A DNA stretch of 34,528 nucleotides from Porphyromonadaceae bacterium (GTDB lineage Bacteria > Bacteroidota > Bacteroidia > Bacteroidales > Porphyromonadaceae), in contig JAUMYQ010000014.1 in assembly GCA_030528555.1 (NCBI GenBank), positions 1-34,528 on the forward strand, given 5' to 3'. A model generated the notes under the pieces. It saw only the letters and a program-made list of their open reading frames with translations, was not told the DNA's origin and did not search any database. The position numbers were made by a program, and so were the translations under genes. This document shows, piece by piece, positions 9,352 through 28,326 of the stretch. Each line of letters begins with the position of its first letter. Position 1 is the first letter of the stretch.

Positions 9352-9445
9352 GAAAAAAAAGATCGGGAACTTTTGAAAATTTCTTCCCGATCTTTTTTCG
9401 AAAAGTTCGGGAACATTTTTTTCGGAGTTCCCGAAGATTTTTTCG
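9352..9445 (+). repeat. 22-bp-phased palindromic-core element, copy 1 (4 cores)
   Basis: Four 9-bp cores start at 9362 (ATCGGGAAC), 9384 (TTCCCGATC), 9406 (TTCGGGAAC) and 9428 (TTCCCGAAG), exactly 22 bp apart and alternating in orientation. AAAAAAGATCGGGAA (9355-9369) is perfectly complementary to TTCCCGATCTTTTTT (9384-9398). TTCGGGAAC (9406-9414) pairs with GTTCCCGAA (9427-9435). The result is two hairpins, the first bounded by A and T tracts that suit termination from either side. The 18-bp ends match as inverted repeats at 13 of 18 positions. CATTT occurs 2 bp outside each end (9345-9349, 9448-9452). At 94 bp it is one 22-bp unit shorter than copies 2 and 3. Confidence 0.9.
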
Positions 9446-9599
9446 TTCATTTGAGAGTGTTTCTAATTTGCTCAAAGACAGTTTGATATAAATTTCTTGA
9501 AGAGGATAGAGGGTTTGTTGCTTCGATGGTGGCCATTGGGGCTGCTGGACGTAAACTTTTGTCCTTTAATTGTCGAGGAGCTAAGTTGGTCTTTTATAC
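9446..9599. other. Gene-free spacer between element copy 1 and the DUF5686 promoter
   Basis: About 150 A/T-rich bases carry no open frame with support. Together with the element and the spacer before it, this makes a 431-bp gap between two genes on the same strand. Nothing further is recognised apart from the promoter element that follows. Confidence 0.5.
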
Positions 9600-9607
9600 T
9601 ATCTTTG
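9600..9607 (+). promoter_or_regulatory. -7 promoter element for the DUF5686 operon
   Basis: TATCTTTG is a full match to TAnnTTTG and is identical to the elements before the sulfatase gene and rpsL. It lies 26 bp before the ATG at 9634, leaving a leader of about 20 bases. A TTTG sits too far upstream (9558-9561) to be a normal -33 element. Confidence 0.6.
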
Positions 9608-9633
9608 GGCCGAATTATAGCTAAGAATAAGCA

Positions 9634-12270
9634 ATGACAATCGGTATTCGATCAGATATAATACGCTGCTTACGTCCGTTCGCCATTACGTTCCTCATAT
9701 TTCTGGGGGTATCTCAGGGGGCTGGCCTTCGTGCTCAGACGCTTCAGGGACGGCTCATCGATGCTGCGACGAAAGAGGGTATTCCTCTTGGGACGGTAGT
9801 GCTAGGTGGCCCTATCAAGGGTATTGGCACATCGTGCGACCTTGACGGCAATTTTACTCTATCTATTCCTCGAGAGGCCATCCGAAATAGGCGCGTCACG
9901 CTGCATCTCTCCTCCATCGGCTACGAGGCGAGAGACTATGTTTGGGTGCAGGATAGCCCCTCTCAGCTCGGTACAATTGCCCTCAAAGAAGCCTCCAATG
10001 AGTTGGACCCTGTGGTGGTACGCCCTACCAAAGAGCGATATCGTAGGAAGAATAACCCTGCTGTGATGCTCATCGAGCGGGCTATTGCTGTCAAGGATAG
10101 TAATCAACTTAAGCAGTTTGCCGACTATTCTTTTCAGGAGTACGAAAAGATACTGTTCTCCCAGGTTGGGGTGACCAAAGGGAAGAAGTACTTTGGCCTC
10201 TCGGCCAGTGTAGCGGATGTGTACAAAGACACCTCCACCCTCGTGGGGACGCATACGATGCCTCTCTCTCTGCGTGAGAAGCAGACCATATATGCAGCTC
10301 GTGGAGGGACCAAGCTAGAGCCCGTCATTACGGGTCGACGCATCCATGGTATCGAGGAGGCCATAGATGAGGGGACGGTGACCAATGGTATCGAGGAGCT
10401 GATAGGTGGCGATATAGATGTGTATGCCAATAATATCAAGTTGCTGATGACTGAGTTTCCCAGCCCGATGAATAGGCATTGGGCGACCTCTTTCTATAAA
10501 TACTACATCAAGGACACGGTAGATTATCAAGGAGCACCTTGCTTCCTGATGCACTTTCGTCCGATGAACCCTCGAAATGTAGGGCTTATGGGCCATGTTT
10601 GGATAGATACCGTACAGCTCTCTTTGCGCCATGTAGAGATGGAGATGCCGAGGCTGGCAGGTATCAACTGGGTGACGAAGATGACGATGGGCGTAGATTT
10701 TGCCCCAATGCCTACGCCAAAGGGAGAGTTTTGGCTGCCAACGAAGAAGAGCCTGGCGATGATCGTCAAGCCAAGCGACCTCTTTGCTCAGGGAGTGGAG
10801 GTGCAGGTCGAGCGCGAGCTACATAGTTACCGCTTCGGTCCCGAAGCTCTGCGAGCCGAATATCTCGACCCTCGTGTGCTGCTTCCTGAGGATGAGCGTG
10901 AGGGTGCTATGGTGGACCGAGCTGGTACTTATGGTATTGTGGATCGTCCCTCTCCCCTCTCCCTCAAAGAGCAAAAGGCGGTGGACTTCCGTACCTATAT
11001 ATATAAGCACAAGGGTTTTCAGCTCGTCACCTCGCTTGGTCGGCTATTTGCTACGGGCTATCTGCCCGTACCCTTCGATTTGCAGAGGAAGGAGCGCGTC
11101 AAACTTGACCTTGGCCCTTATGAGACCATGGTGGGCTACAATGCTGTCGAGGGTTGGAGGTTTCGCTTCGGGGCGATGACGACTGCCAACCTCATGCAGC
11201 ATGTTTTTCTAGAGGGATATGCAGGCTATGCCTTAGGGGATCAAAAGTGGAAGTACTACGGCAAGCTGACCTTTACTCCTCGTAAGTGCGTCTACCAAGT
11301 GAGCGAGGGGCCACGCAACAACCTCTCTCTTATGGCTACGCGTGAGGTATTTAACCCCGATGAAGAGAAGAGCTGGATGTTTAAGGACGATATCACCTCC
11401 TTCCTTGGGAGCTTCCAAAATCGTATGCGTTACTATGGCGATAAGTATCGTGTGGAGTATGAGCGAGACTGGAGCAGTACGTTCTCCACGAGTGTTTGGG
11501 CCGAGTATTTACGCAAGCGAGGGGCTGGCGATCTGCACTTCTATCAGTACGACAGCCACCTTCAGCCCTATGAGATCGACTATGTAGATCAGGCTCACAT
11601 TGGGGCGGAGCTGTCTTGGATTTTTGGCAGAGCCAGACTGCGCACAGTGCGTGAGGGTAAAGGATTAGACCTCACACGCTATCGCCCCAAGCTCGAGGCT
11701 ACCGTCAGGGTCTACCCCAAGGGTGTGCTGGGCAATCCGACGACTTATGCCCTTACCTCGGCATCGTATAGCCAGCGTTTGCAGCTCTCCATCTGGGGGC
11801 GTCTTGATGCGGAGCTGGAGGCTGGGGCTGTGTGGGGCGATGCGCCACAGACCTCGCTCTTCAACCCCAACGCCTCATCGGGCTGGGTGCTGCGTAACCG
11901 TACTTTTCAGACCCTGCGTCCGCTGGAGTATGTGGCGGACAAATATTTACGTTTTCAGGGTACGTACCACATGCGTGGGCTGATACTCAATCGTATTCCC
12001 CTCATCAAGCATATGCGTCTGAGGGAGGTGCTTAGTCTGCATGGCTATTGGGGGCACATCTCCGAGCGCAATAGACTGCCTCGCGAGGGGATGCCCTATT
12101 TACCTTCGACTTCGATCCCGATGGCTGGTAGGCTGCACCTCGAGGTTGGGGCAGGGATAGACAATATTTTCAACCTCTTTCGGGTAGAGTATTTCTACCG
12201 CCTGACAGATCCTCATATCCCTGCATCAGATAGGCACGCTGTGCGCATCCGTACGAGCGTAACGTTCTAG
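9634..12270 (+). CDS. DUF5686 / carboxypeptidase-regulatory-like outer-membrane protein
   Basis: The 878-aa protein has a signal peptide (hydrophobic FAITFLIFLGVSQGAG, cleavage probably after A34). A CarboxypepD_reg-like beta-sandwich follows (about residues 37-117, from LQGRLIDAATKEGIPLGTVV). The long remainder is the DUF5686 region, rich in aromatic, alternating strands. The protein ends in phenylalanine (RTSVTF), as outer-membrane beta-barrels do. The same N-terminal domain occurs on SusC-type receptors, but no TonB plug is visible, so this is not a typical receptor. Its function is not established; a cell-envelope role is inferred. It is followed 4 bp later by the methyltransferase gene, so the two share a transcript. 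Confidence 0.88.
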   Translation: MTIGIRSDIIRCLRPFAITFLIFLGVSQGAGLRAQTLQGRLIDAATKEGIPLGTVVLGGPIKGIGTSCDLDGNFTLSIPREAIRNRRVTLHLSSIGYEARDYVWVQDSPSQLGTIALKEASNELDPVVVRPTKERYRRKNNPAVMLIERAIAVKDSNQLKQFADYSFQEYEKILFSQVGVTKGKKYFGLSASVADVYKDTSTLVGTHTMPLSLREKQTIYAARGGTKLEPVITGRRIHGIEEAIDEGTVTNGIEELIGGDIDVYANNIKLLMTEFPSPMNRHWATSFYKYYIKDTVDYQGAPCFLMHFRPMNPRNVGLMGHVWIDTVQLSLRHVEMEMPRLAGINWVTKMTMGVDFAPMPTPKGEFWLPTKKSLAMIVKPSDLFAQGVEVQVERELHSYRFGPEALRAEYLDPRVLLPEDEREGAMVDRAGTYGIVDRPSPLSLKEQKAVDFRTYIYKHKGFQLVTSLGRLFATGYLPVPFDLQRKERVKLDLGPYETMVGYNAVEGWRFRFGAMTTANLMQHVFLEGYAGYALGDQKWKYYGKLTFTPRKCVYQVSEGPRNNLSLMATREVFNPDEEKSWMFKDDITSFLGSFQNRMRYYGDKYRVEYERDWSSTFSTSVWAEYLRKRGAGDLHFYQYDSHLQPYEIDYVDQAHIGAELSWIFGRARLRTVREGKGLDLTRYRPKLEATVRVYPKGVLGNPTTYALTSASYSQRLQLSIWGRLDAELEAGAVWGDAPQTSLFNPNASSGWVLRNRTFQTLRPLEYVADKYLRFQGTYHMRGLILNRIPLIKHMRLREVLSLHGYWGHISERNRLPREGMPYLPSTSIPMAGRLHLEVGAGIDNIFNLFRVEYFYRLTDPHIPASDRHAVRIRTSVTF

Positions 12271-12274
12271 ACCT

Positions 12275-12937
12275 ATGTCTCTACCCCTAAGTGCTACGCA
12301 CGATGAGCTGCTAGAGAGCTATATCCTTGCGCATACCTCGCCCGAGAGCGACCTAAGGCGAGAGATAGACCGCGCTGCACATGTGCGCCTCATTCGTCCC
12401 CGAATGCTTTCGGGGCATTTACAGGGTAATCTGTTGCGCATGATCGTGCAGATGACAGGGGCGAGCCGTGTGCTCGAGTTAGGTACCTACACGGGCTATG
12501 CTGCCCACTGTATGGCCGAGGCACTTCCTGAGAGTGGCGTGGTACATACTGTGGAGTGCGATGATGAGATGGAGGACTTCATTCGTCATTACATAGACCA
12601 ATCGCCTCATGGATATAAGATGCGTCTGCATATAGGTGACGCTCTGGAGATAGTGCCCCCACTCGTCAAGAGCGAGGTCTTTGATCTTGTCTACATTGAT
12701 GCCAACAAACGGCAGTATCCAGACTATTATCGTCTTATTGTCCCCCACCTCAGGAGTGGTGCCCTTATTCTTGCAGACAATACTCTTTGGGATGGCAAGG
12801 TGGTGCAGCCCGTTCGCCAGAGCGATATACAGACAAGGCGCATCCTGGAGTTTAACCAAATGGTACAGGAAGACCCCAGGGTGGATAACCTTATTTTGCC
12901 TCTAAGAGATGGGCTTAGCCTGATACGAATAAAATAG
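12275..12937 (+). CDS. SAM-dependent O-methyltransferase (caffeoyl-CoA OMT-like family)
   Basis: The 220-aa cytosolic protein has a Rossmann methyltransferase fold. Motif I is LELGTYTGY (67-75), the acidic SAM-ribose region is VECDDEME (93-100), and the metal-binding positions of this family are D142 (YIDANKRQ) and D168-N169 (LADNTLWDG). Such enzymes transfer methyl groups to vicinal hydroxyls with a divalent metal; bacterial members are often promiscuous or tRNA-modifying (TrmR-like), and the substrate here is unknown. The gene starts 4 bp after the DUF5686 gene, and a new promoter follows, so it ends that transcription unit. Confidence 0.9.
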   Translation: MSLPLSATHDELLESYILAHTSPESDLRREIDRAAHVRLIRPRMLSGHLQGNLLRMIVQMTGASRVLELGTYTGYAAHCMAEALPESGVVHTVECDDEMEDFIRHYIDQSPHGYKMRLHIGDALEIVPPLVKSEVFDLVYIDANKRQYPDYYRLIVPHLRSGALILADNTLWDGKVVQPVRQSDIQTRRILEFNQMVQEDPRVDNLILPLRDGLSLIRIK

Positions 12938-12938
12938 T

Positions 12939-12946
12939 TATATTTG
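12939..12946 (+). promoter_or_regulatory. -7 promoter element for the sppA operon
   Basis: TATATTTG fits TAnnTTTG exactly and begins 2 bases after the methyltransferase stop. GTCTC-TGA-GAGAC (12946-12958) overlaps its last base, and TCTCGA/TCGAGA (12989-12994 and 13005-13010) lies further into the 95-base leader. These inverted repeats may be leader hairpins or operators; both are short and could be chance. Confidence 0.5.
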
Positions 12947-13041
12947 TCTCTGAGAGACTAGCACATAGCATGAGATATGTTTGCTTTCTCTCGAATTGAG
13001 ATTGTCGAGATTATCTACTGAAACTATCGAACGCTTAGCCT

Positions 13042-14844
13042 ATGAAGAGCTTCTTGAAAATGCTGTTGGCTTCCATCTTGGGCGTAGTAGCAGGTATGGG
13101 TTGCTTACTGTTTATCCTAGTGCCTATACTTATAGCCAGTGTAGCAGCTCTATTTGCCCCCAATAATCAGCCTCTGACCTCCATAGAGAGCAATACTGTG
13201 CTCAAGGTAGACCTCTCGACAATCTCGGAGGTTGTGGAGGAGAACCCTTTTCAGCGCTTCTTGGGTGGTGAGAGCAAGACCCCCGTGTCGTTGAGTAATG
13301 CTTTGCGTGCTATACGTAAGGCCAAGAATAACCCCAACGTGGTAGGTATCTACCTCTCGGTAGAGCATATGTCAGCAGGGATGGCTTCGGTAGATGAGGT
13401 GCGAGAGGCGATTGACGACTTCAAACAGTCAGGCAAGTTTGTCGTGGCCTATGCCGATACCTATGGCCAGAAAGATTATTATCTCTCTACGGTTGCCGAC
13501 CATGTGCTGCTCAATCCCGTCGGTGAGGTTGCCCTGGTGGGGATTGCCTCGACGAACCTGATGTTTAAGGGGCTACTCGATAACTTGGGCGTTAAGTCTG
13601 AGGTCTTCAAAGTGGGAACGTACAAGGCCGCAGTAGAGCCTTTCGTCCTTCAGCATATTAGTGAAGCCAATCGCGAGCAGATAGAGAGCTATATTGGGGG
13701 GCTGTGGGGTAGTATGACGCATGCCATTGCCCAGGCAAGGGGTATCTCCCCCGAGGTCCTTGATAGTATGGTCAGCCAGGGGATAGCCTTCGATACCTCC
13801 GAGCGTATGCGAGAGGTGGGGCTTGTAGACTCGCTCATCTATCGTAGTGATGTGGGCGAGTTCGTTGCTGACCTCATTGACCCTGAGCTAAGCCAGAAGG
13901 ACCTGCGGATGGTTACGCTCAGCGATATGCTTGGCGTTCCTTCCAATCATGAGCCAAGCGGTAGGGATATCATTGCTGTCCTTACGCTCGAGGGGGAGAT
14001 TATGCCCGAGGAGTATACGCAGTTTGGCCCATCGACACAGGTCATTGGCTATAGTTATGTGGATAAGATCAAGGAGCTTGCCGAGGATGATGCCGTCAAG
14101 GCTGTGGTGCTACGCATCAACTCGCCTGGAGGTAGTGCCTTTATTTCTGAACAAATCTATGAGGCCGTGCGTCAGCTAAGTGCCCAGAAGCCCGTAGTAA
14201 CGTCTATGGGCGATGTGGTGGCCTCGGGAGGCTATTACATCGCCTCGGCTAGTAATTATATTGTCTCGGGGAGAAATACGCTCACTGGCTCCATCGGCAT
14301 CTTCGGCCTGCTGCAGAATGCTACCGAACTGGCTCGTAGAGCTGGGGTGACGCTTGATGTGGTCAAGACCAATAAGTATGCCGATTATGGCTCGATGAGT
14401 ATGCTCCTCCAGCCCATTGGCCCCGAGCAGCGGGCACAGATACAGAGGCAAGTCGAGAGAGGTTACGACATCTTCCTCAGCCGAGTAGCGCAGGGGCGTG
14501 GAATGACTGACGAGCAGGTAGATGCTGTTGGTCAGGGGCGCGTGTGGCTCGGAGCTAGAGCCCTGGAGCTTGGACTGGTCGATGAGCTTGGTGGCCTGCA
14601 GACGGCCATCGCTAAGGCTGCCGAGCTGGCAAATCTTGCCGACTATAGCATTGATCATGGAACAACGGTGCAGAACGTCCTGGAGCAACTTCTGGAGCAG
14701 TCGACCTCTACTGGTGAGTTTGTAGCAGGTTTGCGCTATCTCTTCCTCTCTCCTACGGAGCAGCAGCTTCTCAGGCTCCTTGAGCGGCATAGTACGCCTT
14801 TCGATCTCAAGGCGCGTCTCCCATACGAGATTAATCCTTACTAG
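13042..14844 (+). CDS. sppA: Signal peptide peptidase SppA, 67K type
   Basis: The 600-aa membrane-anchored serine protease degrades cleaved signal peptides. The N-terminal segment (about residues 5-37) is a membrane anchor. Both halves of the tandem ClpP-like fold are present, as in the long E. coli form. The catalytic dyad is split between halves: K195 in VGTYKAAVEPF and S395 in VVASGGYY, matching Lys209/Ser409 of E. coli. The conserved INSPGGSAF precedes the serine. It heads a cluster with lpxK 24 bp downstream, an association I recall from other Bacteroidales. Confidence 0.95.
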   Translation: MKSFLKMLLASILGVVAGMGCLLFILVPILIASVAALFAPNNQPLTSIESNTVLKVDLSTISEVVEENPFQRFLGGESKTPVSLSNALRAIRKAKNNPNVVGIYLSVEHMSAGMASVDEVREAIDDFKQSGKFVVAYADTYGQKDYYLSTVADHVLLNPVGEVALVGIASTNLMFKGLLDNLGVKSEVFKVGTYKAAVEPFVLQHISEANREQIESYIGGLWGSMTHAIAQARGISPEVLDSMVSQGIAFDTSERMREVGLVDSLIYRSDVGEFVADLIDPELSQKDLRMVTLSDMLGVPSNHEPSGRDIIAVLTLEGEIMPEEYTQFGPSTQVIGYSYVDKIKELAEDDAVKAVVLRINSPGGSAFISEQIYEAVRQLSAQKPVVTSMGDVVASGGYYIASASNYIVSGRNTLTGSIGIFGLLQNATELARRAGVTLDVVKTNKYADYGSMSMLLQPIGPEQRAQIQRQVERGYDIFLSRVAQGRGMTDEQVDAVGQGRVWLGARALELGLVDELGGLQTAIAKAAELANLADYSIDHGTTVQNVLEQLLEQSTSTGEFVAGLRYLFLSPTEQQLLRLLERHSTPFDLKARLPYEINPY

Positions 14845-14868
14845 TGGGTCTGGTTGCCCTAGACACCG

Positions 14869-15963
14869 ATGCCTCAGATCAGTCACCTATCTCCAAAATG
14901 TTTTTATCCCCTAGGTTGTCTCTACGGCTGGGGCGTGCGTTTGCGCAACTTTTGCTTCGACCAGGGTTGGCTCAGGAGTAGGAGCTATCCCATTCCAGTC
15001 ATCTGCGTGGGCAACATTACTGCTGGAGGTACTGGTAAGACCCCTCATGTGGAGTATCTCCTCACGTTATTGGGCGAACGCTATCGGATGGCTGTGCTTA
15101 CTCGTGGCTATGGGCGTAGGACCAAAGGGCTGGTTGTAGCCGAGGCTTCTTCGTCTGTCGAGGAAGTGGGTGATGAGCCCAGGCAGATTAAGCGCAAGTA
15201 CCCTCATGTAATGGTGATAGTAGATGGCAATCGTTGCCGTGCTATGGACTACCTGATGGGGCTATCCGAGGCAGAGAGACCACAGGTGGTTGTTATGGAC
15301 GATGGGTTTCAGCACCGCTATATCCGTCCGAGCTATAGCATTGTACTGGTAGACGCTACGCAACCTGTGTGGGAGGAGAGGTTACTTCCTTGTGGACATC
15401 TGCGCGAGCCTCTCACGGCACTTGACCGCGCCGACTGCGTTATCGCTACGAAGTGCCCAACCGATATGCCACCCATCGGACAGCGTATTATCAAGCGCAG
15501 CCTCAAGCTGTTTCCGCATCAGCGCATTTACTTCTCTCGCATCAAGTATCAGCCACTACGCCCCCTCATAGGTTTATTGACTGAGGGGGTAGGGTTAGAG
15601 GCCTCTCCTCCACCGCAGCCAGGCGCGCCGGTGATACAGCTTACAGGCATAGCCAACCCCGAGCCCTTGGAGGCTTATCTGGGCAAGCAGTATCGGGTTA
15701 TAGACAAGTGGGTGTATCGGGACCACTATCCTTTCGCCCCCTCCGATGTTCGGCAGTGGAGCGAGCAGGCTCGAGATTTATCCAAGGACTGCGCCAGCTG
15801 GACCGTGGTCTGTACAGAAAAGGATGCTATGCGCTTGCTCGATATAGCATCTACCATCCCCCAAGAACTCCTTACACGTATTTATTATCTCCCTATTAGT
15901 ATCCAAATATTGGACAAGGAGAAGGATTTCATCCACCTTATTGGCCGATTGGCAGGAGGCTAA
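14869..15963 (+). CDS. lpxK: Tetraacyldisaccharide 4'-kinase (lipid A biosynthesis)
   Basis: The 364-aa inner-membrane-associated kinase phosphorylates the 4' position of the lipid A disaccharide precursor. The P-loop is GNITAGGTGKTPHVEYL (about 49-65), followed by TRGYGRRTKG and the catalytic and metal region VVMDDGFQHRY (about 142-152). The N-terminus carries the short amphipathic, membrane-associating helix typical of LpxK. The length is normal for the phylum. No other lipid A gene is in the window. It lies between sppA (24 bp) and the thiL-like gene (27 bp). Confidence 0.95.
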   Translation: MPQISHLSPKCFYPLGCLYGWGVRLRNFCFDQGWLRSRSYPIPVICVGNITAGGTGKTPHVEYLLTLLGERYRMAVLTRGYGRRTKGLVVAEASSSVEEVGDEPRQIKRKYPHVMVIVDGNRCRAMDYLMGLSEAERPQVVVMDDGFQHRYIRPSYSIVLVDATQPVWEERLLPCGHLREPLTALDRADCVIATKCPTDMPPIGQRIIKRSLKLFPHQRIYFSRIKYQPLRPLIGLLTEGVGLEASPPPQPGAPVIQLTGIANPEPLEAYLGKQYRVIDKWVYRDHYPFAPSDVRQWSEQARDLSKDCASWTVVCTEKDAMRLLDIASTIPQELLTRIYYLPISIQILDKEKDFIHLIGRLAGG

Positions 15964-15990
15964 TAGTACGTCCCCATCTCTCGATAGATT

Positions 15991-17031: not shown

Positions 17032-17059
17032 ACCACAGAGACATCGAGCTATAGCGATT

Positions 17060-17410: not shown

Positions 17411-17494
17411 CTATACAATCGTCAGAGTGCGTACTTTTTCTTGTCCTACAGACTATTGCGACAAGCGAATGCCTTTGGCTGCATCCCCTACCCC

Positions 17495-17527
17495 TTTGGT
17501 ATGGTGTGCTCGGAGCAAAATTTGCTC
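17495..17527 (+). promoter_or_regulatory. Promoter with overlapping 15-bp palindrome before the lipoprotein gene
   Basis: A -33-like TTTG (17495-17498) is followed after 18 bp by AAAATTTG (17517-17524), a degenerate -7 element. The -7 lies inside a perfect inverted repeat GAGCAAA-A-TTTGCTC (17513-17527). A dimeric repressor bound there would block the promoter. The identity of the regulator is unknown. The ATG follows 33 bp after the palindrome. Confidence 0.5.
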
Positions 17528-19470: not shown

Positions 19471-19586
19471 CAAAAAAATGCTCGGGAAAACTCAAAAAAA
19501 TGTTCCCGAACTTTTTTCTCAGAGTTCCCGAACTTTTTCCAAAAAGATCGGGAAGAAATTTTTGAAAGTTCCCGAAGTTTTTTTTG
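19471..19586 (-). repeat. 22-bp-phased palindromic-core element, copy 2 (5 cores, inverted)
   Basis: On the + strand, cores start at 19480 (GCTCGGGAA), 19502 and 19524 (GTTCCCGAA), 19546 (GATCGGGAA) and 19568 (GTTCCCGAA), every one 22 bp apart. Read on the - strand the order and spacers match copy 3: over the first four units plus the fifth core, 93 of 97 positions agree, and units 2 and 3 are identical. The ends CAAAAAAATGCTCGGGAA (19471-19488) and TTCCCGAAGTTTTTTTTG (19569-19586) are inverted repeats at 15 of 18 positions. AGATG flanks the element at 19465-19469 and 19589-19593. The lipoprotein gene already has its own terminator upstream, so ending that transcript is not this copy's only possible role. 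Confidence 0.92.
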
Positions 19587-19778
19587 AAAGATGGGGGTAT
19601 CTCTTAAGTGTCCTATAATGAGTGTATTATGAATTCTTGTTGGTTCGAGGGTTCTATGGGTCTTTTGTGGTTGATTTTATCACGCCGGTCCTTCGAATGA
19701 GTAGGCCAAAATACAATTCAGAGATAGCGAATTAAGGCGCTCAGATCTAGCTCGTTCTGACCAATGATGGAATTTTTG
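19587..19778. other. Gene-free spacer between element copy 2 and the GT5-like gene promoter
   Basis: About 190 A/T-rich bases carry no supported open frame or recognisable RNA. With the terminator and the element this forms a 527-bp gap. I see no remnant of a transposase or of a neighbouring gene. Confidence 0.5.
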
Positions 19779-19786
19779 TAATTTTG
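19779..19786 (+). promoter_or_regulatory. -7 promoter element for the GT5-like/DUF4270 operon
   Basis: TAATTTTG matches TAnnTTTG. TTCTG about 20 bp upstream (near 19755) is a weak -33 candidate. The ATG is at 19837, giving a leader of roughly 45 bases. Confidence 0.55.
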
Positions 19787-19836: not shown

Positions 19837-20640
19837 ATGAAGTCGAAGCGAGTATTATATATATCTCAGGAGGTCGTGCCGTACCTGCCCGAGTCGGAAG
19901 TGGCCAATAAATCCAGATACCTGCCACAGTACATTCAAGAGCGTGGCAATGAGGTCCGCTTATTCATGCCACGCTATGGAGTGGTCAATGAGCGACGGAA
20001 TCAGCTTCACGAGGTCAAGCGTCTCTCGGGTATCAATATGATTATTAACAATCAGGATCATCCGCTCGTTATCAAGGTTGCCTCTATCCAGTCTGCTCGC
20101 ATGCAGGTGTACTTTATCGACAATGATGACTTTTTTAAGCGCAAATCTCTTTTTGGTTATGACTCCAAACGAGGTAACGACAATGATGAGCGCTCTATCT
20201 TCTTCGTTCGAGGTGCGCTCGAGACGGTCAAGAAGTTACGCTGGATACCCGATGTGATTCACTGCCATGGCTGGTTCTCCGTTTTAGCTATGGTCTACCT
20301 CAAAAAGGTTTATCACGATGACCCTTGCCTCAAGAAGGCCAAGCTCATCTATTCGGTCTATGACGATGCCGAGCTGGTGGATATGCCTGAGACGCTTTTT
20401 GAGAAACTTAAGTTCGATGGTATCAAGGGAGCTTCTGTCGCTATGATGGATGTTCAGACAGACTATAAGGCACTCATGAAGCTTGCCATACATCATGCTC
20501 ACGCCGTAGTGCAGGGTAGCGAGCAGATAGACCCCGAGATACTGGAGTATATCCAGGGCAACACGAAGTACTTCCTCCCTTATCAGGGTGCGGAGGACTA
20601 TGCTGATGCCTACAATGAGTTTTATGATAAAGTAGTATGA
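19837..20640 (+). CDS. Half-length starch/glycogen synthase-like (GT5 N-terminal domain) protein
   Basis: The 267-aa protein corresponds only to the N-terminal Rossmann domain of GT5 glycogen synthases: VLYISQEVVPYLPE at the start, GNEVRLFMPRYG (37-48) and the DVIHCHGWFSVL motif (139-150). The C-terminal nucleotide-sugar-binding domain is missing. The ADP-glucose contact motif KTGGL is replaced by PESEV (18-22). It is therefore unlikely to be a working glycogen synthase. Comparable half-length proteins labelled glycogen synthase occur widely in Bacteroidales. The stop overlaps the next start as ATGA, so translation is coupled to the DUF4270 lipoprotein gene. Confidence 0.85.
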   Translation: MKSKRVLYISQEVVPYLPESEVANKSRYLPQYIQERGNEVRLFMPRYGVVNERRNQLHEVKRLSGINMIINNQDHPLVIKVASIQSARMQVYFIDNDDFFKRKSLFGYDSKRGNDNDERSIFFVRGALETVKKLRWIPDVIHCHGWFSVLAMVYLKKVYHDDPCLKKAKLIYSVYDDAELVDMPETLFEKLKFDGIKGASVAMMDVQTDYKALMKLAIHHAHAVVQGSEQIDPEILEYIQGNTKYFLPYQGAEDYADAYNEFYDKVV

Positions 20641-22037: not shown

Positions 22038-22061
22038 GCTGATGAGGGGTAACGATCTATA

Positions 22062-22105
22062 AGGGTGTGTCTGAGGTAGCAAGAGACTACCTAACGGCGC
22101 ACCCT
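22062..22105 (+). terminator. Two-part hairpin ending the GT5-like/DUF4270 operon
   Basis: The outer stem AGGGTGTGTC (22062-22071) pairs with GGCGCACCCT (22096-22105), with two G-U pairs. The inner stem AGGTAG (22074-22079) pairs with CTACCT (22087-22092) around a 7-base loop. Downstream is ATCCTTTGG, so the U run is poor. It probably ends transcription 24 bp after the stop, although a regulatory role in the leader of the next gene is possible. Confidence 0.65.
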
Positions 22106-22117
22106 ATCCTTTGGGGC

Positions 22118-22126
22118 TAACCTTTG
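22118..22126 (+). promoter_or_regulatory. Probable -7 promoter element for the MFS-ABC operon
   Basis: TAACCTTTG is one base longer than the TAnnTTTG consensus. It lies just after the hairpin and 33 bp before the ATG at 22160, the right place for a promoter of the permease gene. No good -33 element is visible. Confidence 0.35.
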
Positions 22127-22159
22127 TACAATAAAACTAAAGATCTAAGGGAAACGAAT

Positions 22160-23392
22160 ATGAGCAATCTGCGACTACGACTAACGCTTCTCAACTTTTT
22201 GCAGTTCGCCGTTTGGGGCTGCTACCTTATCTCGCTCGGAGGCTATTTGATGAGTTCTCTCGGCTATTCGGGGCTAGAGGTGGGGGCCATGTATGGGACG
22301 ATGGGCATCGCCTCGCTCTTTATGCCAGCACTAGTGGGTATTATAGCCGACAAGTATGTCAATGCCGAGCGCCTACTTGCACTCTGCCACATGCTCAGCG
22401 CTGCCTTTCTTGTAGGTATGTCGATGACGGCAGACTACGGGACGGCCTATTTGCTCTTCCTCGGGGCGAATTTATTCTATATGCCAACCATCGCTTTGAC
22501 CAATACGATTTGCTATAGTCTGATGTCTCGCAGTCGGTTGGATATCGCCTCTACCTTCCCCAAGATACGAGTGTGGGGTACGGTGGGCTTCATTGCTGCC
22601 ATGTGGACGGTGGGGTTGTGTGGTTGGGCAGCTTCGCCAGTGCAGCTCTATGTCTCGGCAGTGCTTAGTTTGGTGCTCTCGGTGCTCGCCATTACGCTAC
22701 CACCATCTCCCCCCAGTCGTTCGGAGGGTAAGAAGAGCCTCTCTTCGATGCTCGGCCTAGACGCTTTGGTGCTGTTTAAGAACTACAATATGAGCATTTT
22801 CTTCGTCTTCTCGATGCTCCTGGGTGCTGCCCTGCAGATTACTAATACATTTGGAACTCCTTTCCTCTCCAGCTTCTCGGCGGAGTATGCCGATAGCCTA
22901 GCGGTGCGCTATCCGACCATTCTACTATCACTCTCGCAGATCTCCGAGACGCTTTTTATTCTCTCGATACCTTTCTTTCTCAATCGCTTCGGTATCAAGA
23001 TGGTCATGCTCATGAGTATGCTGGCGTGGGTGCTACGCTTCGGTCTTTTCGGTATTGGCAATCCTGGGGATGGCTTCGTCTTCCTCGTCCTGTCGATGAT
23101 CGTATATGGGATGGCCTTTGACTTCTTCAACGTGTCGGGCTCGATGTTCGTAGACCGTGAGGTAGACCCAAGCATGCGTGGCTCAGCTCAAGGGCTGTTC
23201 ATGATGATGACCAATGGCGTGGGGGCTATTCTTGGTGGGCTTGGCAGTGGCTATGTGGTGGACTTCTTTAAGAACGGGATGGGGCAGACCGAGTGGAGCC
23301 CAGTATGGTTCACCTTTGCGAGCTATGCCCTCATCATCATGCTGCTCTTTGCAGTGCTATTCCGCTACAAAGAGCCTCGTGCTACGAGCTAA
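22160..23392 (+). CDS. MFS transporter, nucleoside:H+ symporter-like
   Basis: The 410-aa inner-membrane protein has about twelve hydrophobic segments. The opening LRLTLLNFLQFAVWGCYLIS resembles NupG/XapB-type nucleoside permeases common in Bacteroidota, so import of nucleosides with protons is the likely role. The start at 22160 (MSNLRLRLTL) is chosen over an in-frame ATG at 22124, which would add a polar tail and overlap the probable -7 element. The ABC exporter gene follows 3 bp after its stop. Confidence 0.85.
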   Translation: MSNLRLRLTLLNFLQFAVWGCYLISLGGYLMSSLGYSGLEVGAMYGTMGIASLFMPALVGIIADKYVNAERLLALCHMLSAAFLVGMSMTADYGTAYLLFLGANLFYMPTIALTNTICYSLMSRSRLDIASTFPKIRVWGTVGFIAAMWTVGLCGWAASPVQLYVSAVLSLVLSVLAITLPPSPPSRSEGKKSLSSMLGLDALVLFKNYNMSIFFVFSMLLGAALQITNTFGTPFLSSFSAEYADSLAVRYPTILLSLSQISETLFILSIPFFLNRFGIKMVMLMSMLAWVLRFGLFGIGNPGDGFVFLVLSMIVYGMAFDFFNVSGSMFVDREVDPSMRGSAQGLFMMMTNGVGAILGGLGSGYVVDFFKNGMGQTEWSPVWFTFASYALIIMLLFAVLFRYKEPRATS

Positions 23393-23395
23393 ACG

Positions 23396-25252
23396 ATGAG
23401 GGACCTCTACAGGCTCATACGCCACTATCTACCACCATATCGGTGGTATCTCGTCCTGAGCATCGTTGCCAATATCTTCAGTGCACTGCTCAATCTGGTG
23501 GCATTCTCCCTCGTTATGCCCATTTTGCGCATCCTTTTTCGCATCGAAGATCGGGTGGAGAGCCTCGTGCCTTTGGAGGGTATTTCGTTGACTTCTCCCA
23601 GTGCCTGGGGCGAGCTGGGGGCGGCTTTGAACAACAACTTCGCCTATTACGTTGGTGAGGTGATGGATCTATATGGTCCATCCGATACGCTCATTCTTTT
23701 GGGGGCATATCTCGTGCTGATGACGGCCCTCAAAGTTGGGGCCACCTACCTTGGCCTCTTTTGTATGATCCCGATACGTACGGGTATTGTGCGCGATATG
23801 CGTCTAGAGCTATATCGGAAAGTTCTGACCCTGCCTCTCGGCTTTTTCAGTGACGAGCGCAAGGGCGATGTGCTGGCGCGTATTTCGGGCGATGTGTCGG
23901 AAGTGGAGCATTCGATTATGAGTTCGCTTGATCTCATCCTTAAGAACCCTATCCTCATCATTACCTACCTCGGGACAATGCTCCTTATTAGTTGGCAGCT
24001 GACTCTCTTCGTCTTTGTCTTATTGCCTATCGCTGGGCTTGTGATGGGTCGGGTGGGGAAGGCTCTCAAACGTGACAGCCTCGAGGTCCAGACGCAGTGG
24101 GGCGATGTGCTGAGCATGATAGAGGAGACGCTGGGGGGACTGCGTATCGTCAAGGCGTTTACGAGCGAGGCATATATGAATACCCGATTTGCCACAGCTA
24201 CGGCTCGCTTCCGCTCCGCTGTGACGGCACTCTTTCGTAGACAACAGTTGGCGCACCCGATGAGCGAACTCCTTGGTACCGCTACTATCGCCGTTGTGTT
24301 GTGGTACGGTGGTCGGCTTATCTTAGAGGGTAGGGGAGATATTGATGCCTCTACGTTCATCTATTACCTTGTTATCTTCTACAGCCTCATCAATCCGCTC
24401 AAGGATTTGAGTAAAGGTGTCTACGCCATTCGCAAGGGGATGGGGTCTATGATGCGCATAGATAGGATACTTTCGGCCGAGAGCAGCATCCGAGAGGTTG
24501 CCGAGCCTCGGGCGATAACCTTCGATGAGGCAATTGAGCTACGCGGTGTATCGTTTCGTTATGCCCAGGAGTGGGTGCTACGTGATGTGAATCTCACCAT
24601 TCGCAAGGGGCAGACTGTAGCCCTCGTGGGGCAGAGTGGCTCGGGTAAGAGTACCCTCGTGGACCTCATTCCCCGATTTTATGACCCTACTGAGGGGAGT
24701 ATCCTCATCGATGGGGTGGATATTCGGCAGGTCGCTCTCACCGATTTGCGGCGGTTAATGGGCAATGTCAATCAGGACCCCATCCTTTTTAACGATACTA
24801 TCTTCAATAATATCGCCTTTGGTGAGGAAGGAGCTAGCCTGGCTGCCGTGCAGCATGCAGCCGATATTGCTCACGTGAGTGAATTTGTGGACCAAATGCC
24901 CGAGGGCTACGAGGCGAATATCGGTGACCGTGGCTCTAAGCTTTCGGGAGGCCAAAGGCAAAGGCTTAGCATTGCCCGAGCTATCTTCAAAAATCCTCCT
25001 ATACTCATTCTCGATGAGGCGACCTCTGCGCTTGATACCACAAGCGAACGTCTGGTACAGAATGCACTTGATGCCTTGATGCATGACCGTACGACTATCA
25101 TTATTGCTCACCGTCTCTCGACCATCATTGGGGCGGACCTTATCTGTGTACTGCATGAGGGGCGTCTCGTTGAGTGTGGGCGACATGAGGAGTTGCTTGC
25201 CCTTGGAGGACATTATGCACGCCTACATCAGTTGCAGCATGCTGAGGGATAA
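23396..25252 (+). CDS. ABC exporter, fused permease-ATPase (MsbA/lipid-type)
   Basis: The 618-aa half-transporter has a six-helix membrane domain (about 15-320) and a C-terminal ATPase. Catalytic motifs are complete: Walker A GQSGSGKST (412-420), signature LSGGQRQR (516-523), Walker B ILILDEATSALD (from 536) with catalytic E541, and switch histidine H572 (IIIAHRLST). The family includes lipid A flippases and drug or peptide exporters. Its membership of the lpxK-containing neighbourhood would fit a lipid substrate, but lpxK is 8 kb away in another transcript, so the substrate is open. It works as a homodimer unless a partner exists elsewhere. Confidence 0.93.
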   Translation: MRDLYRLIRHYLPPYRWYLVLSIVANIFSALLNLVAFSLVMPILRILFRIEDRVESLVPLEGISLTSPSAWGELGAALNNNFAYYVGEVMDLYGPSDTLILLGAYLVLMTALKVGATYLGLFCMIPIRTGIVRDMRLELYRKVLTLPLGFFSDERKGDVLARISGDVSEVEHSIMSSLDLILKNPILIITYLGTMLLISWQLTLFVFVLLPIAGLVMGRVGKALKRDSLEVQTQWGDVLSMIEETLGGLRIVKAFTSEAYMNTRFATATARFRSAVTALFRRQQLAHPMSELLGTATIAVVLWYGGRLILEGRGDIDASTFIYYLVIFYSLINPLKDLSKGVYAIRKGMGSMMRIDRILSAESSIREVAEPRAITFDEAIELRGVSFRYAQEWVLRDVNLTIRKGQTVALVGQSGSGKSTLVDLIPRFYDPTEGSILIDGVDIRQVALTDLRRLMGNVNQDPILFNDTIFNNIAFGEEGASLAAVQHAADIAHVSEFVDQMPEGYEANIGDRGSKLSGGQRQRLSIARAIFKNPPILILDEATSALDTTSERLVQNALDALMHDRTTIIIAHRLSTIIGADLICVLHEGRLVECGRHEELLALGGHYARLHQLQHAEG

Positions 25253-25281
25253 GGCTTGGTATGCGCAAAATATAAATCACT

Positions 25282-25731
25282 ATGACAACCAATACTATAG
25301 AGCAAGCCGTAGACCTTGGGCAGCTTGGGGCACATATGCCCTGGACGGAGGTGTTTGCAGATCTCAAGTATCCGATGCCCTACCCAGAGGTGGTGATGGC
25401 TGGCGAGCTGGCCTATGCTCAGTTTACCCAAATGAATAGTTTGCTCATGATGCTCTCTTGGGAGGGCGATAGCAGAGCAAGCTACACGCTTACGCCCCTT
25501 GCTGGAGGCGAGGGCATGGAAGTGCCTAATCAGGTTTATCGCCTCATGGTAGACGTGAGGCTCGATGGCTACAACGAGGCTTGGGCTACGCTTGGTATTA
25601 CAGAGCTTCAGTTGCTAGGGTATGTACAGCAGGCCGTGGCTGCCTGGGCCATGCACAAGCAGTGGGGCTCCACTGCTGTGCGCTCGGTTCGTATCGACGA
25701 GACAAGCTGGACGGTAATGCCCACTCCATAA
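25282..25731 (+). CDS. Uncharacterised 149-aa protein
   Basis: I do not recognise this protein. It has no signal peptide, no membrane segment and no cysteines. It is acidic to neutral, with several Trp, Tyr and Met residues (MPWTEVFADLKYPMPYPE near the N-terminus) and a likely mixed alpha/beta fold (YRLMVDVRLDGYNEAWATLG, LLGYVQQAVAAWAMHKQWG). It lies 29 bp after the ABC exporter gene and 54 bp before the Crp/Fnr gene on the same strand, so it is probably co-transcribed with one or both. Codon use looks like its neighbours, which supports a real gene. Confidence 0.7.
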   Translation: MTTNTIEQAVDLGQLGAHMPWTEVFADLKYPMPYPEVVMAGELAYAQFTQMNSLLMMLSWEGDSRASYTLTPLAGGEGMEVPNQVYRLMVDVRLDGYNEAWATLGITELQLLGYVQQAVAAWAMHKQWGSTAVRSVRIDETSWTVMPTP

Positions 25732-25785
25732 GCCTTACGCTGCAAGATTAATGTCTCGGCCCCTCGTAGGATTAACCCAGCACGT

Positions 25786-26478
25786 ATGGAAGAGCTCGAC
25801 CTAGCTTTGCAGAGCCTGCATCTGTGGTGCTTGATCTCCGATGAAGAGGAGCGGAAGCTGCTGCGTCAAGGCTCTAGCTTGGAGATCCTGACTTCGGGCG
25901 AGCGGATCTTTTCTGAGGGCGACTCGATGGGGAATCTCTGCTATCTGTGCTCGGGTCAGGTGGTGATGAGCCGATCGGGAGTAAATGGGCGCAGTCACAT
26001 CACGCGCCTTGTACGCTCGGGACAGTTCTTTGGCATTCGTCCCTACTTTGCAGGTAAGTCTGCCCAAAGTACGGCAACGGTCTTCGGGCAGGAGGCTGCT
26101 CTCTTACGTATTTGTACTACCGCTATAGGGACATTGCTCGAGCGTAATACACGCATTTGTCGCTATTTCCTTGAGACACTATCGACCGAGCTGGAGCGGA
26201 TAGAGGAACGGATGATAACGCTTACTCAGAAGCATATCCGTGGTCGTCTGGCCGATACCCTCCTTTCGCTGGCCAAGCACTATGGCTATGAGGCGGACGG
26301 CATTACACTCTCGATTTATCTCAGTCGCAGAGACCTTGGTACGCTCAGCAATATGACCACGAGCAACGTTATCCGTACGCTGTCGCTTTTTGCCTCGGAG
26401 CGCATTGTCTCTCTCGAGGGGAGGCGCATACGTATTATTAACTCCAATGAGCTAGAGCGGATTAGTCGCATAGGTTAG
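25786..26478 (+). CDS. Crp/Fnr-family transcription regulator
   Basis: The 230-aa regulator has an N-terminal cyclic-nucleotide-binding-like beta-roll (about 15-130, LTSGERIFSEGDSMGNLCYL), a long dimerisation helix and a C-terminal winged helix (about 150-225) with the recognition helix near LGTLSNMTTSNVIRTLSLF. The cAMP-contact pattern of true Crp is not evident. Cysteines are few and not arranged as an Fnr iron-sulfur site. The effector is therefore unknown. nhaA follows 57 bp downstream, so it could control nhaA or the upstream transporters. Confidence 0.9.
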   Translation: MEELDLALQSLHLWCLISDEEERKLLRQGSSLEILTSGERIFSEGDSMGNLCYLCSGQVVMSRSGVNGRSHITRLVRSGQFFGIRPYFAGKSAQSTATVFGQEAALLRICTTAIGTLLERNTRICRYFLETLSTELERIEERMITLTQKHIRGRLADTLLSLAKHYGYEADGITLSIYLSRRDLGTLSNMTTSNVIRTLSLFASERIVSLEGRRIRIINSNELERISRIG

Positions 26479-26535
26479 ATGGGAAGTCTCGATTTACTAA
26501 TCGTATACATCAATTTCAAATTATAGATTTCGCTT

Positions 26536-27888
26536 ATGAGTAAACTCAATCAAATGCTATCTCCGCTTCGTAAAATCTCCATTCCGAAGCCGAATGCGTC
26601 TGTACTTCTTTTCCTAGCTGCTCTTGCCGCAGTGGCTATAGCCAACTCTTCCCTCTCGGAGGCCTATATGGCACTGTTAAACTTCCCCTATGAGGTCAAG
26701 ATCTTTGGCTATGAGATTTTTCAACATCACGGTCAGACGATGACCTTTGCTCAGTTTGTCAACGATGGGCTCATGGCCATTTTCTTCTTTGTTGTTGGGC
26801 TGGAGATCAAGCAGGAGATGACGGTGGGGGAGCTATCTTCGGTCAAGAAGTCCATCCTACCCGTGATAGCAGCCTTGGGAGGGATAATAATCCCTGTGCT
26901 GCTATTCTGGCTTATCTCACCAGAGGGTGACGCTATGCGTGGCATGGCTATCCCGATGGCAACGGATATTGCTTTTGCTCTTGCTCTACTGGGTGCGCTT
27001 GGCAGGCATGTACCACCTTCGTTTCGTGTCTTCTTGATGGCTTTAGCCGTAGCGGACGACATTGGTGGTATCATTATCATCGCCCTATTTTACAGTACGC
27101 ACGTGGCTTGGGCTCCTCTCATTGTAGCCCTTGGTGTGGTACTGCTCGTGGCCTTCATCGGTAAGCTTGGTATGCGCAGTTCGCTATTTTACTATGCTGT
27201 TTTCCTTATAGTCTGGCTACTCTTCTTGCAGTCTGGTGTACATACGACTATTGCGGGTGTGCTTGTGGCCTTGGCGATGCCCCTGACGACGAGGGTACGC
27301 CCCGAGGATCTTCAGCTGCGTATGCGAGAAGAGTTTACTCAGCTCAATCCCAGTGCGCACAAAGAGGCTCGTGGTGCATTGGTGCTCTCACACGAGCAGC
27401 TCAATGTCACGAGTGAGCTGCGCCGTACGCTCAGTTATACTGTTAGCCCAGTACAGACGATGGAGCATGCCCTCTCGCCTATTGTGAGCTACTTCATCCT
27501 TCCCGTGTTTGCTTTCGTCAATGCAGGAGTGTCTTTTGATGGCATCTCGTCCGATGGTCTGCTCGGTCTACCTTTGGCTATCTTCTGCGGGTTGTTTTTG
27601 GGTAAAACGATTGGCATTAGTCTCTTTACTTGGGCTGCTGTCAAGCTTGGTATCAGCCCATGGCCCAAGAGTATGACATCACAGACGCTTGTCCCTCTGG
27701 CTATGTTTGGTGGTATTGGCTTCACTGTGTCTCTCTTCATCGCGAGCTTGTCGTATGGCGTTGGGATGGAGGAACTACTCAATCAAGCTAAGCTTGGTAT
27801 ATTCGCTGGGACGATCATCTCAGGTCTTGCTGGCTATCTGTTTCTAGGGCGTATGCTTAGGTCTTGCGGTATCTCTAGCGAAGACTAA
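26536..27888 (+). CDS. nhaA: Na+/H+ antiporter NhaA
   Basis: The 450-aa inner-membrane antiporter exports sodium in exchange for protons. The ion-binding pair D174-D175 (VADDIGGI) matches Asp163-Asp164 of E. coli. FVNDGLMAIFFFVVGLEIKQE near the N-terminus and the glycine-rich FGGIGFTVSLFIASL near the end are also typical. It exceeds the 388-aa E. coli protein because of a longer cytoplasmic loop (about 255-305, from TTRVRPEDLQLRMREEFTQL), a feature I recall from other Bacteroidota NhaA. It is the last gene before the ribosomal operon head. Confidence 0.95.
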   Translation: MSKLNQMLSPLRKISIPKPNASVLLFLAALAAVAIANSSLSEAYMALLNFPYEVKIFGYEIFQHHGQTMTFAQFVNDGLMAIFFFVVGLEIKQEMTVGELSSVKKSILPVIAALGGIIIPVLLFWLISPEGDAMRGMAIPMATDIAFALALLGALGRHVPPSFRVFLMALAVADDIGGIIIIALFYSTHVAWAPLIVALGVVLLVAFIGKLGMRSSLFYYAVFLIVWLLFLQSGVHTTIAGVLVALAMPLTTRVRPEDLQLRMREEFTQLNPSAHKEARGALVLSHEQLNVTSELRRTLSYTVSPVQTMEHALSPIVSYFILPVFAFVNAGVSFDGISSDGLLGLPLAIFCGLFLGKTIGISLFTWAAVKLGISPWPKSMTSQTLVPLAMFGGIGFTVSLFIASLSYGVGMEELLNQAKLGIFAGTIISGLAGYLFLGRMLRSCGISSED

Positions 27889-28200
27889 GATAGCTTGATA
27901 GCTGCTCCCCTCTACTCGTTTTCTTCTCTGAGGGAAGGGGATGCTTATGAGGCCTTCGTTGAAGGCTATCGGGGCTGTGTCGGAGATTGTCTCTGGCGCA
28001 GCCTTGTTGATTTTGTCACTTATGTCCCTTTGAGTATAGAGTATCGAGAGAGAGCCTTCGTAAGGCCATGAGGTGGTCTCAATCAAATTGTGTCCTACTT
28101 CGGGGTGGCCATATAGAACTTCATCCTCTCCATTCTGGTGGTTTACAGCCTTTGATGAGAGGTTTTCTAATAGTCTTATAATTAAATGATTAAGTAATCT
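27844..28200 (-). pseudogene. Possible degenerate coding remnant on the minus strand
   Basis: A frame of about 118 codons is open from 28200 down to a stop at 27844-27846, inside the end of nhaA. It has no ATG (only a TTG at 28084-28086). The translation looks protein-like in part, with GHPEVGHNLIETTSWPYEG and INKAAPETISDTAPIAF. Its beginning runs on into phased element copy 3, which is itself open in this frame. It may be the tail of a gene cut off by insertion of the element, or chance. I do not recognise the family. Confidence 0.22.
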
Positions 28201-28210
28201 CTGGGATTGG
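27889..28210. other. Spacer downstream of nhaA without a + strand gene
   Basis: This is the first part of a 669-bp gap between nhaA and rpsL. It has no clear terminator hairpin for nhaA and no + strand gene. The only coding-like signal is the minus-strand frame listed separately. The base composition becomes A/T-rich towards the phased element at 28211. Confidence 0.5.
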
Positions 28211-28326
28211 CCAAAAAATCTTCGGGAACTTTTGAAAATTTCTTCCCGATCTTTTTGGAAAAAGTTCGGGAACTCTGAGAAAAAAGTTCGGGAACATTTT
28301 TTCGAGTATTCCCGAGCATTTTTTTG
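28211..28326 (+). repeat. 22-bp-phased palindromic-core element, copy 3 (5 cores)
   Basis: Cores start at 28221 (TTCGGGAAC), 28243 (TTCCCGATC), 28265 and 28287 (TTCGGGAAC) and 28309 (TTCCCGAGC), each exactly 22 bp apart. The 13-bp spacers are A/T-rich and conserved with copy 2. The ends CCAAAAAATCTTCGGGAA (28211-28228) and TTCCCGAGCATTTTTTTG (28309-28326) are inverted repeats at 15 of 18 positions. Core 4 and core 5 can pair as a 9-bp stem with one G-U pair, flanked by an A tract and a T tract. CTCTGG occurs on both sides (28199-28204 and 28330-28335). It lies 323 bp after nhaA and about 140 bp before the rpsL -7 element. Confidence 0.92.

What the first reader, a model, noticed from the sequence alone, without database searches (positions are those of the whole stretch)
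9352..28326. Three intergenic arrays with 9-bp cores phased at exactly 22 bp
Fourteen cores (4, 5 and 5) occur at 9362, 9384, 9406, 9428; 19480, 19502, 19524, 19546, 19568; and 28221, 28243, 28265, 28287, 28309. Every step is 22 bp, even though the cores flip between TTCGGGAAC and its reverse-complement form. A spacing this strict suggests selection or a copying mechanism that works in whole units. Twenty-two bp is close to two DNA turns, so all cores would face the same side of the helix, which suits a protein that binds cooperatively. Copy 2 is inverted relative to copies 1 and 3. I know of no named element with this structure; P. gingivalis tandem-repeat MITEs (BrickBuilt) are the nearest analogy I recall.
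Basis: partly seen in the sequence, partly recalled or inferred. Interest (0 to 1): 0.8.

Follow-up and report, generated by a model that had tools for sequence, protein, structure and literature searches.

The report
Evenly phased DNA arrays near promoters
Short, nearly palindromic DNA words repeated at exactly 22 base pairs sit upstream of genes about 120 times in this bacterium, and related bacteria carry arrays of quite different words at nearly the same two-helical-turn step, which suggests a little-known class of landing pads for a DNA-binding protein.

Summary
Observation confirmed: 14 cores in three intergenic arrays, all 11 within-array steps 22 bp although cores flip. They belong to a dispersed element with about 120 copies in this draft genome (merged by hand); 306 of 312 steps in 90 copies are 22 bp. 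No Rfam, plasmid or phage match; no RAYT gene in this genome.

Larger result: a period-agnostic survey of 1,183 kb from 23 genomes of the same family found 68 tandem loci, 63 with period 21-23 or 42-46 bp; 348 kb from other families gave 5 loci, 1 at 23. Forty representative units form 26 sequence groups and are enriched for dyad symmetry. The published 23-nt BrickBuilt repeat of P. gingivalis is one of them. Sampled arrays avoid convergent gene pairs. In this genome they lie a preferred 150-166 bp from Bacteroidetes -7 boxes and are more evenly spaced than chance; the second species shows no such promoter peak. Positions are not shared between two species.

Best reading: mobile, promoter-side arrays of operator-like sites for a cooperatively binding dimeric protein. 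Binder and function are not shown.

The parts
9354..9443 (+). array 1: four cores at 22-bp steps (centres 9365.5, 9387.5, 9409.5, 9431.5)
9316..9352 (-). flank module on the left of array 1, of the type seen beside the four-core copies (reads, outward, AAATGGGGT...TTA)
   Evidence: consensus; coordinates read
19471..19584 (-). array 2: five cores at 22-bp steps, inverted relative to arrays 1 and 3
19590..19629 (-). flank module on the right of array 2 (GATGGGGGTATCTCTTAAG...GTATTA)
28213..28326 (+). array 3: five cores at 22-bp steps; used as query for the family
28168..28192 (+). flank module on the left of array 3 (TAAT...CTTAT...GATTA)
9600..9607 (+). TAnnTTTG (-7 type) box 168 bp from the last core of array 1, before the gene at 9634
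19779..19786 (+). TAnnTTTG box 207 bp from the last core of array 2 (outside the preferred distance), before the gene at 19837
28465..28472 (+). TAnnTTTG box 152 bp from the last core of array 3, before rpsL
9634..12270 (+). gene downstream of array 1 (DUF5686 with a carboxypeptidase-regulatory-like domain)
19837..20640 (+). gene downstream of array 2 (starch synthase catalytic domain)
28558..28968 (+). gene downstream of array 3 (ribosomal protein S12, rpsL)

Best explanation
The arrays are dispersed, promoter-side clusters of operator-like sites. Each unit is a near-dyad core, so one dimer could bind per unit in either orientation; the two-turn step puts neighbouring dimers on the same face of the helix, so that they bind cooperatively as a short nucleoprotein patch upstream of promoters. 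The arrays spread and turn over by copying to new intergenic places in each species, so positions and core words are lineage-specific while the geometry is kept. Shown here: copy number, phase, family-wide 21-23 bp period on unlike sequences, dyad excess, avoidance of convergent gene pairs, preferred promoter distance and even genomic spacing in this genome. Inferred: the protein, its dimeric and cooperative binding, mobility, and the effect (modulating or insulating neighbouring promoters, or holding supercoil domains).
For: Steps: 306 of 312 at 22 bp in 90 copies, whatever the core orientation. Survey of 23 family genomes: 63 of 68 tandem loci at 21-23 or 42-46 bp; shuffles 0; other families 1 of 5. 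Unlike units: 40 representatives in 26 groups. In G012 a 16-bp core repeats at 22 bp while neighbouring 6-bp linkers are no more alike than random ones (0.38 vs 0.45, 41 pairs). Dyad symmetry: 6 of 6 pairs in 14 of 79 unit consensuses vs 1.6% of shuffles, at least 5 in 43 of 79 vs 22%. Isolated cores are at about 0.1 per kb near arrays (25 in 254 kb), so the word is kept in arrays, not singly. Context: 4 of 69 sampled intergenic arrays between convergent genes vs 19% of intergenic bases (P 0.0017); G000 24 divergent vs 9 convergent, G016 23 vs 2. Promoter distance in G000: 32 of 72 boxes within one 25-bp window, permutations mean 13.4, maximum 22 of 5,000. Spacing in G000: CV 0.57 vs 0.95 (sd 0.09), 1 of 88 intervals under 4.4 kb vs 27 (uniform) or 23 (intergenic-site null) expected.
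Against: No binding protein was found or sought by homology. G016 shows no clear promoter-distance peak. Array-linked genes are not shared between G000 and G016 (8 of 167 flanking proteins hit any of 94), which argues against fixed regulation of particular genes. G012 arrays can lie 1.6-2.9 kb apart (L198), so even spacing is not general. 36 of 79 unit consensuses score below 5 of 6 dyad pairs. Divergent pairs are not significantly enriched in the unbiased sample (22 of 69, P 0.12). No arrays at 21-23 bp were seen in the samples of G003, G028, G030 and G031 (G028 has 44-bp ones).
Confidence: 0.5

Rival explanations
1. Selfish MITE or minisatellite without host function: a BrickBuilt-like element spreads through a foreign transposase, and its internal tandem units expand and contract. 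Intergenic placement reflects only tolerance, and the step is inherited.
For: About 120 near-identical copies; degenerate inverted flank modules on both sides in G000; positions not shared with G016; copy number differs widely between species; BrickBuilt in P. gingivalis has TIRs, 4-bp target duplications and empty sites (PMC4596501, sections read, passages).
Against: It does not explain why unlike units in many genomes keep 21-23 bp, nor the tight array-to-promoter distance with otherwise unrelated sequence between, nor the even spacing. No target duplication or empty site was shown for this element. G016 arrays have no conserved flanks.
Confidence: 0.3
2. Wrapping or supercoil sites for gyrase, HU or another architectural protein that reads helical phasing and bendability more than sequence, comparable to gyrase at BIME-2 in E. 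coli.
For: Geometry is conserved while sequence is not; even spacing of about 13 kb in G000; promoter-side placement; E. coli gyrase motif has phased 10-bp G/C variation and BIME-2 hold gyrase sites (PMC6379681, passages).
Against: The E. coli motif has a one-turn period and gyrase sites there lie downstream of active operons, not upstream of promoters. It does not explain dyad symmetry or the near-invariant core words within a genome.
Confidence: 0.12
3. RNA element: the array is transcribed and folds as a long hairpin, acting as terminator or processing site.
For: The G000 copy folds as one hairpin pairing core 1 with 5 and 2 with 4 (z -3.6 and -4.7 on the two strands).
Against: 0 of 41 predicted pairs show a change on both sides among 22 copies. 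In G016 units mostly run head to tail (126 same-orientation vs 11 opposite-orientation steps at 22 bp), so they cannot form that hairpin. Arrays avoid convergent pairs, where terminators are expected. No Rfam match.
Confidence: 0.04
4. REP/BIME-type repeats spread by a RAYT (Y1) transposase.
For: Palindromic units, intergenic, many copies, lineage-specific words.
Against: Y1_Tnp (PF01797) matches in only 7 of 38 family genomes and in none of G000, G016, G025 and G027, which bear many arrays. Strict two-turn phasing is not a REP property as I recall it.
Confidence: 0.02

Closest known systems
BrickBuilt minisatellite/MITE of Porphyromonas gingivalis (PMC4596501)
   Same: Same genus; intergenic; tandem units without extra spacers; period 23 nt, close to two helical turns; found in my sample of G025 (L247, L248), where two of three consensuses have 6 of 6 dyad pairs; units gained and lost whole.
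   Different: Unit AGAYCATARTATCCTCTCRTRTG and TIR GAGACCTTTGCA do not resemble this element; 19 copies against about 120; leader and tail segments up to 285 and 318 nt; the paper does not use the word palindrome (0 occurrences in the text held) and reports no promoter distance in what I read.
BIME/REP elements of E. coli
   Same: Clusters of palindromic intergenic units in many copies; candidates for chromosome organisation.
   Different: No RAYT here, constant two-turn step, promoter side rather than operon 3' side (the latter recalled).
Plasmid iterons and operator clusters such as lambda OR (recalled, no call)
   Same: Direct or dyad sites at about two helical turns, bound cooperatively.
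   Different: Those are single loci; here about 120 chromosomal loci, no known cognate protein, no plasmid or phage match.
Gyrase sites in BIME-2 (PMC6379681, passages)
   Same: Phased composition, intergenic, possible domain role.
   Different: One-turn period and downstream of operons there; sequence-specific cores here.

Membership tests
BrickBuilt (strict sense) | 23-nt unit AGAYCATARTATCCTCTCRTRTG | tested here: not met
   Unit here is 22 bp with TTCSSSGAA core
BrickBuilt (strict sense) | TIR like ISPg1/ISPg9 (GAGACCTTTGCA) | tested here: not met
   Flank consensus shows no such end; compared by eye
Two-turn phased array class (named here; includes BrickBuilt) | tandem intergenic units at 21-23 bp | tested here: met
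   class
Two-turn phased array class (named here; includes BrickBuilt) | dyad-symmetric core | tested here: met
   G000 cores are TTCC/CGAA dyads bar the centre; excess across the class, but 36 of 79 score below 5 of 6
MITE | terminal inverted repeats | tested here: inconclusive
   Degenerate similar modules on both sides (about 0.3-0.5 bit per position); no sharp ends
MITE | target-site duplication or empty site | not testable with these tools
   One genome per species; no strain pair
REP/RAYT | Y1 transposase in the genome | tested here: not met
   PF01797: none in G000, 7 of 38 family genomes
Structured RNA / terminator | covarying stem | tested here: not met
   0 of 41 pairs with both sides changed
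Structured RNA (Rfam) | match above gathering score | tested here: not met
   0 matches in the window
Gyrase / architectural site | enzyme cleavage or binding in vivo | not testable with these tools
   needs cleavage mapping or ChIP

The most novel reading that the evidence does not exclude
Porphyromonadaceae carry a family-wide chromosomal system of two-turn phased operator arrays, read by a fast-diverging set of dimeric DNA-binding proteins, that attaches to promoters of arbitrary genes at a set distance and divides the chromosome at fairly even intervals. Its core words change from species to species like dialects while the geometry stays fixed, and BrickBuilt is one dialect.
Probability: 0.3. 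Interest if true: 0.92.

Novelty: new variant of a known kind. Interest (0 to 1): 0.75.

Why it matters
If right, a repeat known as a curiosity of one pathogen is one case of a rule that runs through a bacterial family: geometry conserved, sequence free. That makes an old question testable, namely whether dispersed bacterial repeats are selfish or serve promoters and chromosome structure, because the rule predicts a protein, a face of the helix, a promoter distance and a spacing along the chromosome. It also shows a practical point: short-read assemblies of these genomes break in the arrays.

Tried and rejected
RNA hairpin or terminator: the fold is real for the G000 copy but unsupported by covariation and absent from the head-to-tail arrays of G016. 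REP/RAYT: rejected for this genome. Phage or plasmid origin: blastn of one copy found nothing in the plasmid and phage collections and one exact 35-base pattern found nothing in viral contigs; low-complexity filtering may hide matches. Conserved regulation of orthologous genes between G000 and G016: 8 of 167 flanking proteins had any hit among 94, and only two pairs (75% and 78% identity, L027/L153 and L081/L153) look like plain orthologues; about 10 would be shared by chance if each genome has some 1,600 genes, which is my estimate. A second dyad at the flank modules in register with the array: palindromy 0.30-0.35 against a background of 0.25, not peaked at the expected centre, dropped. A GATTTTGA-like word at 100-104 bp: 25 of 99 gene-start sides against 13 of 69 gene-end sides within 80-150 bp, too weak to use. 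Helical phase of the promoter distance: best of five periods tried was 11.0 (n 59, Rayleigh P about 0.0009), suggestive only. First patterns with A/T tracts used a 'control' that itself has a 22-bp period, so its hits in other genomes were arrays in another register, which one search then listed; the period-agnostic survey replaced these. Literature: searches gave no paper on such arrays beyond BrickBuilt; only open-licence papers are held.

Full report
1. Observation. The three arrays are as described. Measured from symmetry centres, all 11 within-array steps are 22.0 bp, copy 2 is the inverted copy of copy 3 (114 nt, 96%) and copy 1 is a four-core variant. Of 14 cores, 7 are exact 9-mers in one orientation and 7 are variants. 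The window has no Rfam match at gathering score and no tRNA.

2. A dispersed element. In the window's own draft genome (G000, 1.78 Mb, 42 contigs, 85.6% complete) a DNA search with copy 3 scored 40 places, all at 87-100% identity on the matching strand, and a sequence-only profile (R1) listed 150 or more matches counting both strands, with the list cut. Merging these by hand gives about 120 places (110 on the 22 contigs used plus about a dozen on contigs with one place); pieces at contig ends may be halves of one array. In 90 fetched copies 306 of 312 steps under 60 bp are 22 bp (21: 3, 23: 1, 44: 1, 45: 1). By exact 7-mers the copies have 5 (41), 4 (41), 3 (5) or 6 (3) cores; some counts are lowered by contig ends or a degenerate last core. 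Because copies are near-identical, the equal step within this species is mostly inheritance.

3. Same geometry, other words. The profile searched in 100 genomes (own included) matched 20 at E 0.01 or better, but apart from G000 only G016, of the same genus, has a clear set (39 matches, best 7e-10; the others 1-2 borderline matches). G016 arrays use another word, GTTCCGAGAGA between A and T tracts, in mostly head-to-tail units (steps of 22: 126 same orientation, 11 opposite; 137 of 173 steps found by a loose pattern are 22). Patterns then found arrays in G019, G025, G011, G010, G005, G022, G027, G026 and G028 and, with gaps free from 0 to 12, in G012, G033 and others; the best lag was 22 or 44 in all 18 loci kept.

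4. Unbiased survey. To avoid patterns that presuppose 22 bp, I took 60 stretches (1,183 kb; 20 from G012, 40 from 22 other family genomes) and scored every lag from 10 to 60. At the strict setting 68 loci remained after 4 microsatellites were set aside: 47 at 21-23, 16 at 42-46, 5 elsewhere (14, 18, 24, 40, 50); shuffles gave 0. Twenty stretches from 20 other families of the order (348 kb) gave 5 loci (15, 15, 23, 39, 57), 3 microsatellites set aside. At two looser settings the family gave 71 and 72 at 21-23 of 94 and 97, the other families 1 of 8 and 3 of 12. Arrays at 21-23 bp were found in 19 of the 23 sampled family genomes, but the two of G002 are 7-bp repeats; G003, G028, G030 and G031 had none, G028 having 44-bp arrays that alternate two words. 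The period tends to be a genome's own: 23 in G014, G015, G021 and G025, 21 in G017 and G024, 22 in most others. Forty representative units fall into 26 groups at 68% cyclic identity, where shuffles reach 64% at the 99th percentile; two groups look like short-unit repeats, and G000, G016 and one G012 unit group together.

5. Symmetry and linkers. In 79 arrays (3 from other families) the unit consensus has 6 of 6 dyad pairs in 14 (1.6% of shuffles) and at least 5 in 43 (22% of shuffles). In G012 the 16-bp frame TGA-N10-TCA occurs 134 times in 400 kb with pair distances 22 (35), 44 (23), 66 (12), 88 (1) and only five others up to 100 bp; neighbouring 6-bp linkers are no more alike than random pairs (0.38 against 0.45; 41 pairs). 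Some G012 arrays look like copies of one four-unit element, seen in the printed rows and not tested.

6. BrickBuilt. G025 is a single 2,354,886-bp contig, which I recall as the size of P. gingivalis ATCC 33277, and its sampled 23-bp arrays carry the published BrickBuilt unit. I read the abstract, passages and two sections of PMC4596501. Two of the three sampled arrays show 6 of 6 dyad pairs. G025 also has 22-bp arrays with TTTATATATAAA.

7. Gene context. Gene calls here are my own ORF and codon scores, not annotation. G000: of 90 loci 51 tandem, 24 divergent, 9 convergent, 6 at edges, 1 overlapping an ORF; G016: of 51 loci 23, 23, 2, with 1 edge, 2 without a recognised array and 4 overlaps. 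In the unbiased sample 76 arrays were 43 tandem, 22 divergent, 4 convergent, 4 edge, 3 in genes, while intergenic bases are 56, 25 and 19%: convergent pairs are avoided (P 0.0017), divergent not significantly enriched (P 0.12).

8. Promoter distance in G000. A TAnnTTTG box lies 120-200 bp from the outermost core on 51 of 99 sides facing a gene start and 2 of 69 facing a gene end; the second figure is partly expected, since promoters face starts. The sharper test keeps each array-to-start and box-to-start distance but permutes them: 32 of 72 boxes fall in one 25-bp window, permutations average 13.4 and never pass 22 in 5,000. Sequence between array and box is otherwise unrelated, so the promoter is not part of the copied element. 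In the window the three boxes lie 168, 207 and 152 bp away. G016 shows no clear peak.

9. Spacing along the genome. 88 intervals in G000 average 13.2 kb with CV 0.57 (uniform null 0.95, sd 0.09, lowest of 2,000 0.67); 1 is under 4.4 kb against 27 expected, lowest 13, or 23, lowest 10, when only intergenic sites with the window's own gaps are allowed. No second array appeared in 271 kb around 90 arrays. G016 gave CV 0.63 from an incomplete list. G012 arrays can be close together (L198), so this is not general.

10. Turnover. Flanking genes are not shared: 8 of 167 G000 proteins hit any of 94 G016 proteins. G000 copies have weakly conserved, similar modules on both sides; G016 copies do not. I read this as spread by copying in each lineage, but showed no empty site or target duplication.

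11. Mechanism and judgement. The conserved thing is geometry: dyad cores, one per two helical turns, in clusters, beside promoters. That fits a dimeric protein binding cooperatively on one face better than an RNA element, RAYT repeats or a minisatellite without function, but no binder is known. The selfish-element reading remains the strongest rival and the two can both be true. Searches of open-licence papers found nothing on the family-wide pattern.

Noticed in passing
G000 contig ends (e.g. C11:1-102, C25:1-83, C19:1-77, C33:33119-33192): At least 19 of 84 contig ends of the draft genome lie inside an array (two more counted rest on assumed contig lengths), so short-read assembly breaks at these repeats.
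   Followed up: partly
L187, L195 (G028): Arrays that alternate two unrelated core words, each 22 bp, giving a 44-bp period.
   Followed up: partly
L180, L190 (G025, P. gingivalis by recalled size): 22-bp arrays with core TTTATATATAAA exist beside BrickBuilt; G010 has the same word.
   Followed up: no
L222 (G004), L205 (G012), L185/L193 (G027): The word CGTGCGCACG (or close variants) recurs in arrays of three genomes of two genera.
   Followed up: no
window 28448-28458: A lone TTTCGGGAAAT core overlaps the rpsL promoter just before its -7 box; isolated cores are otherwise at background (25 in 254 kb).
   Followed up: partly
L122, L124, L135, L149, L155 (G016): A second word, close to GATACGTATC, often sits near the end of G016 arrays (by eye).
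   Followed up: no
L256 (G002); L231:1-191 (G013): A 7-bp microsatellite of CTAACCT type and a 40-bp tandem repeat at a contig start.
   Followed up: no
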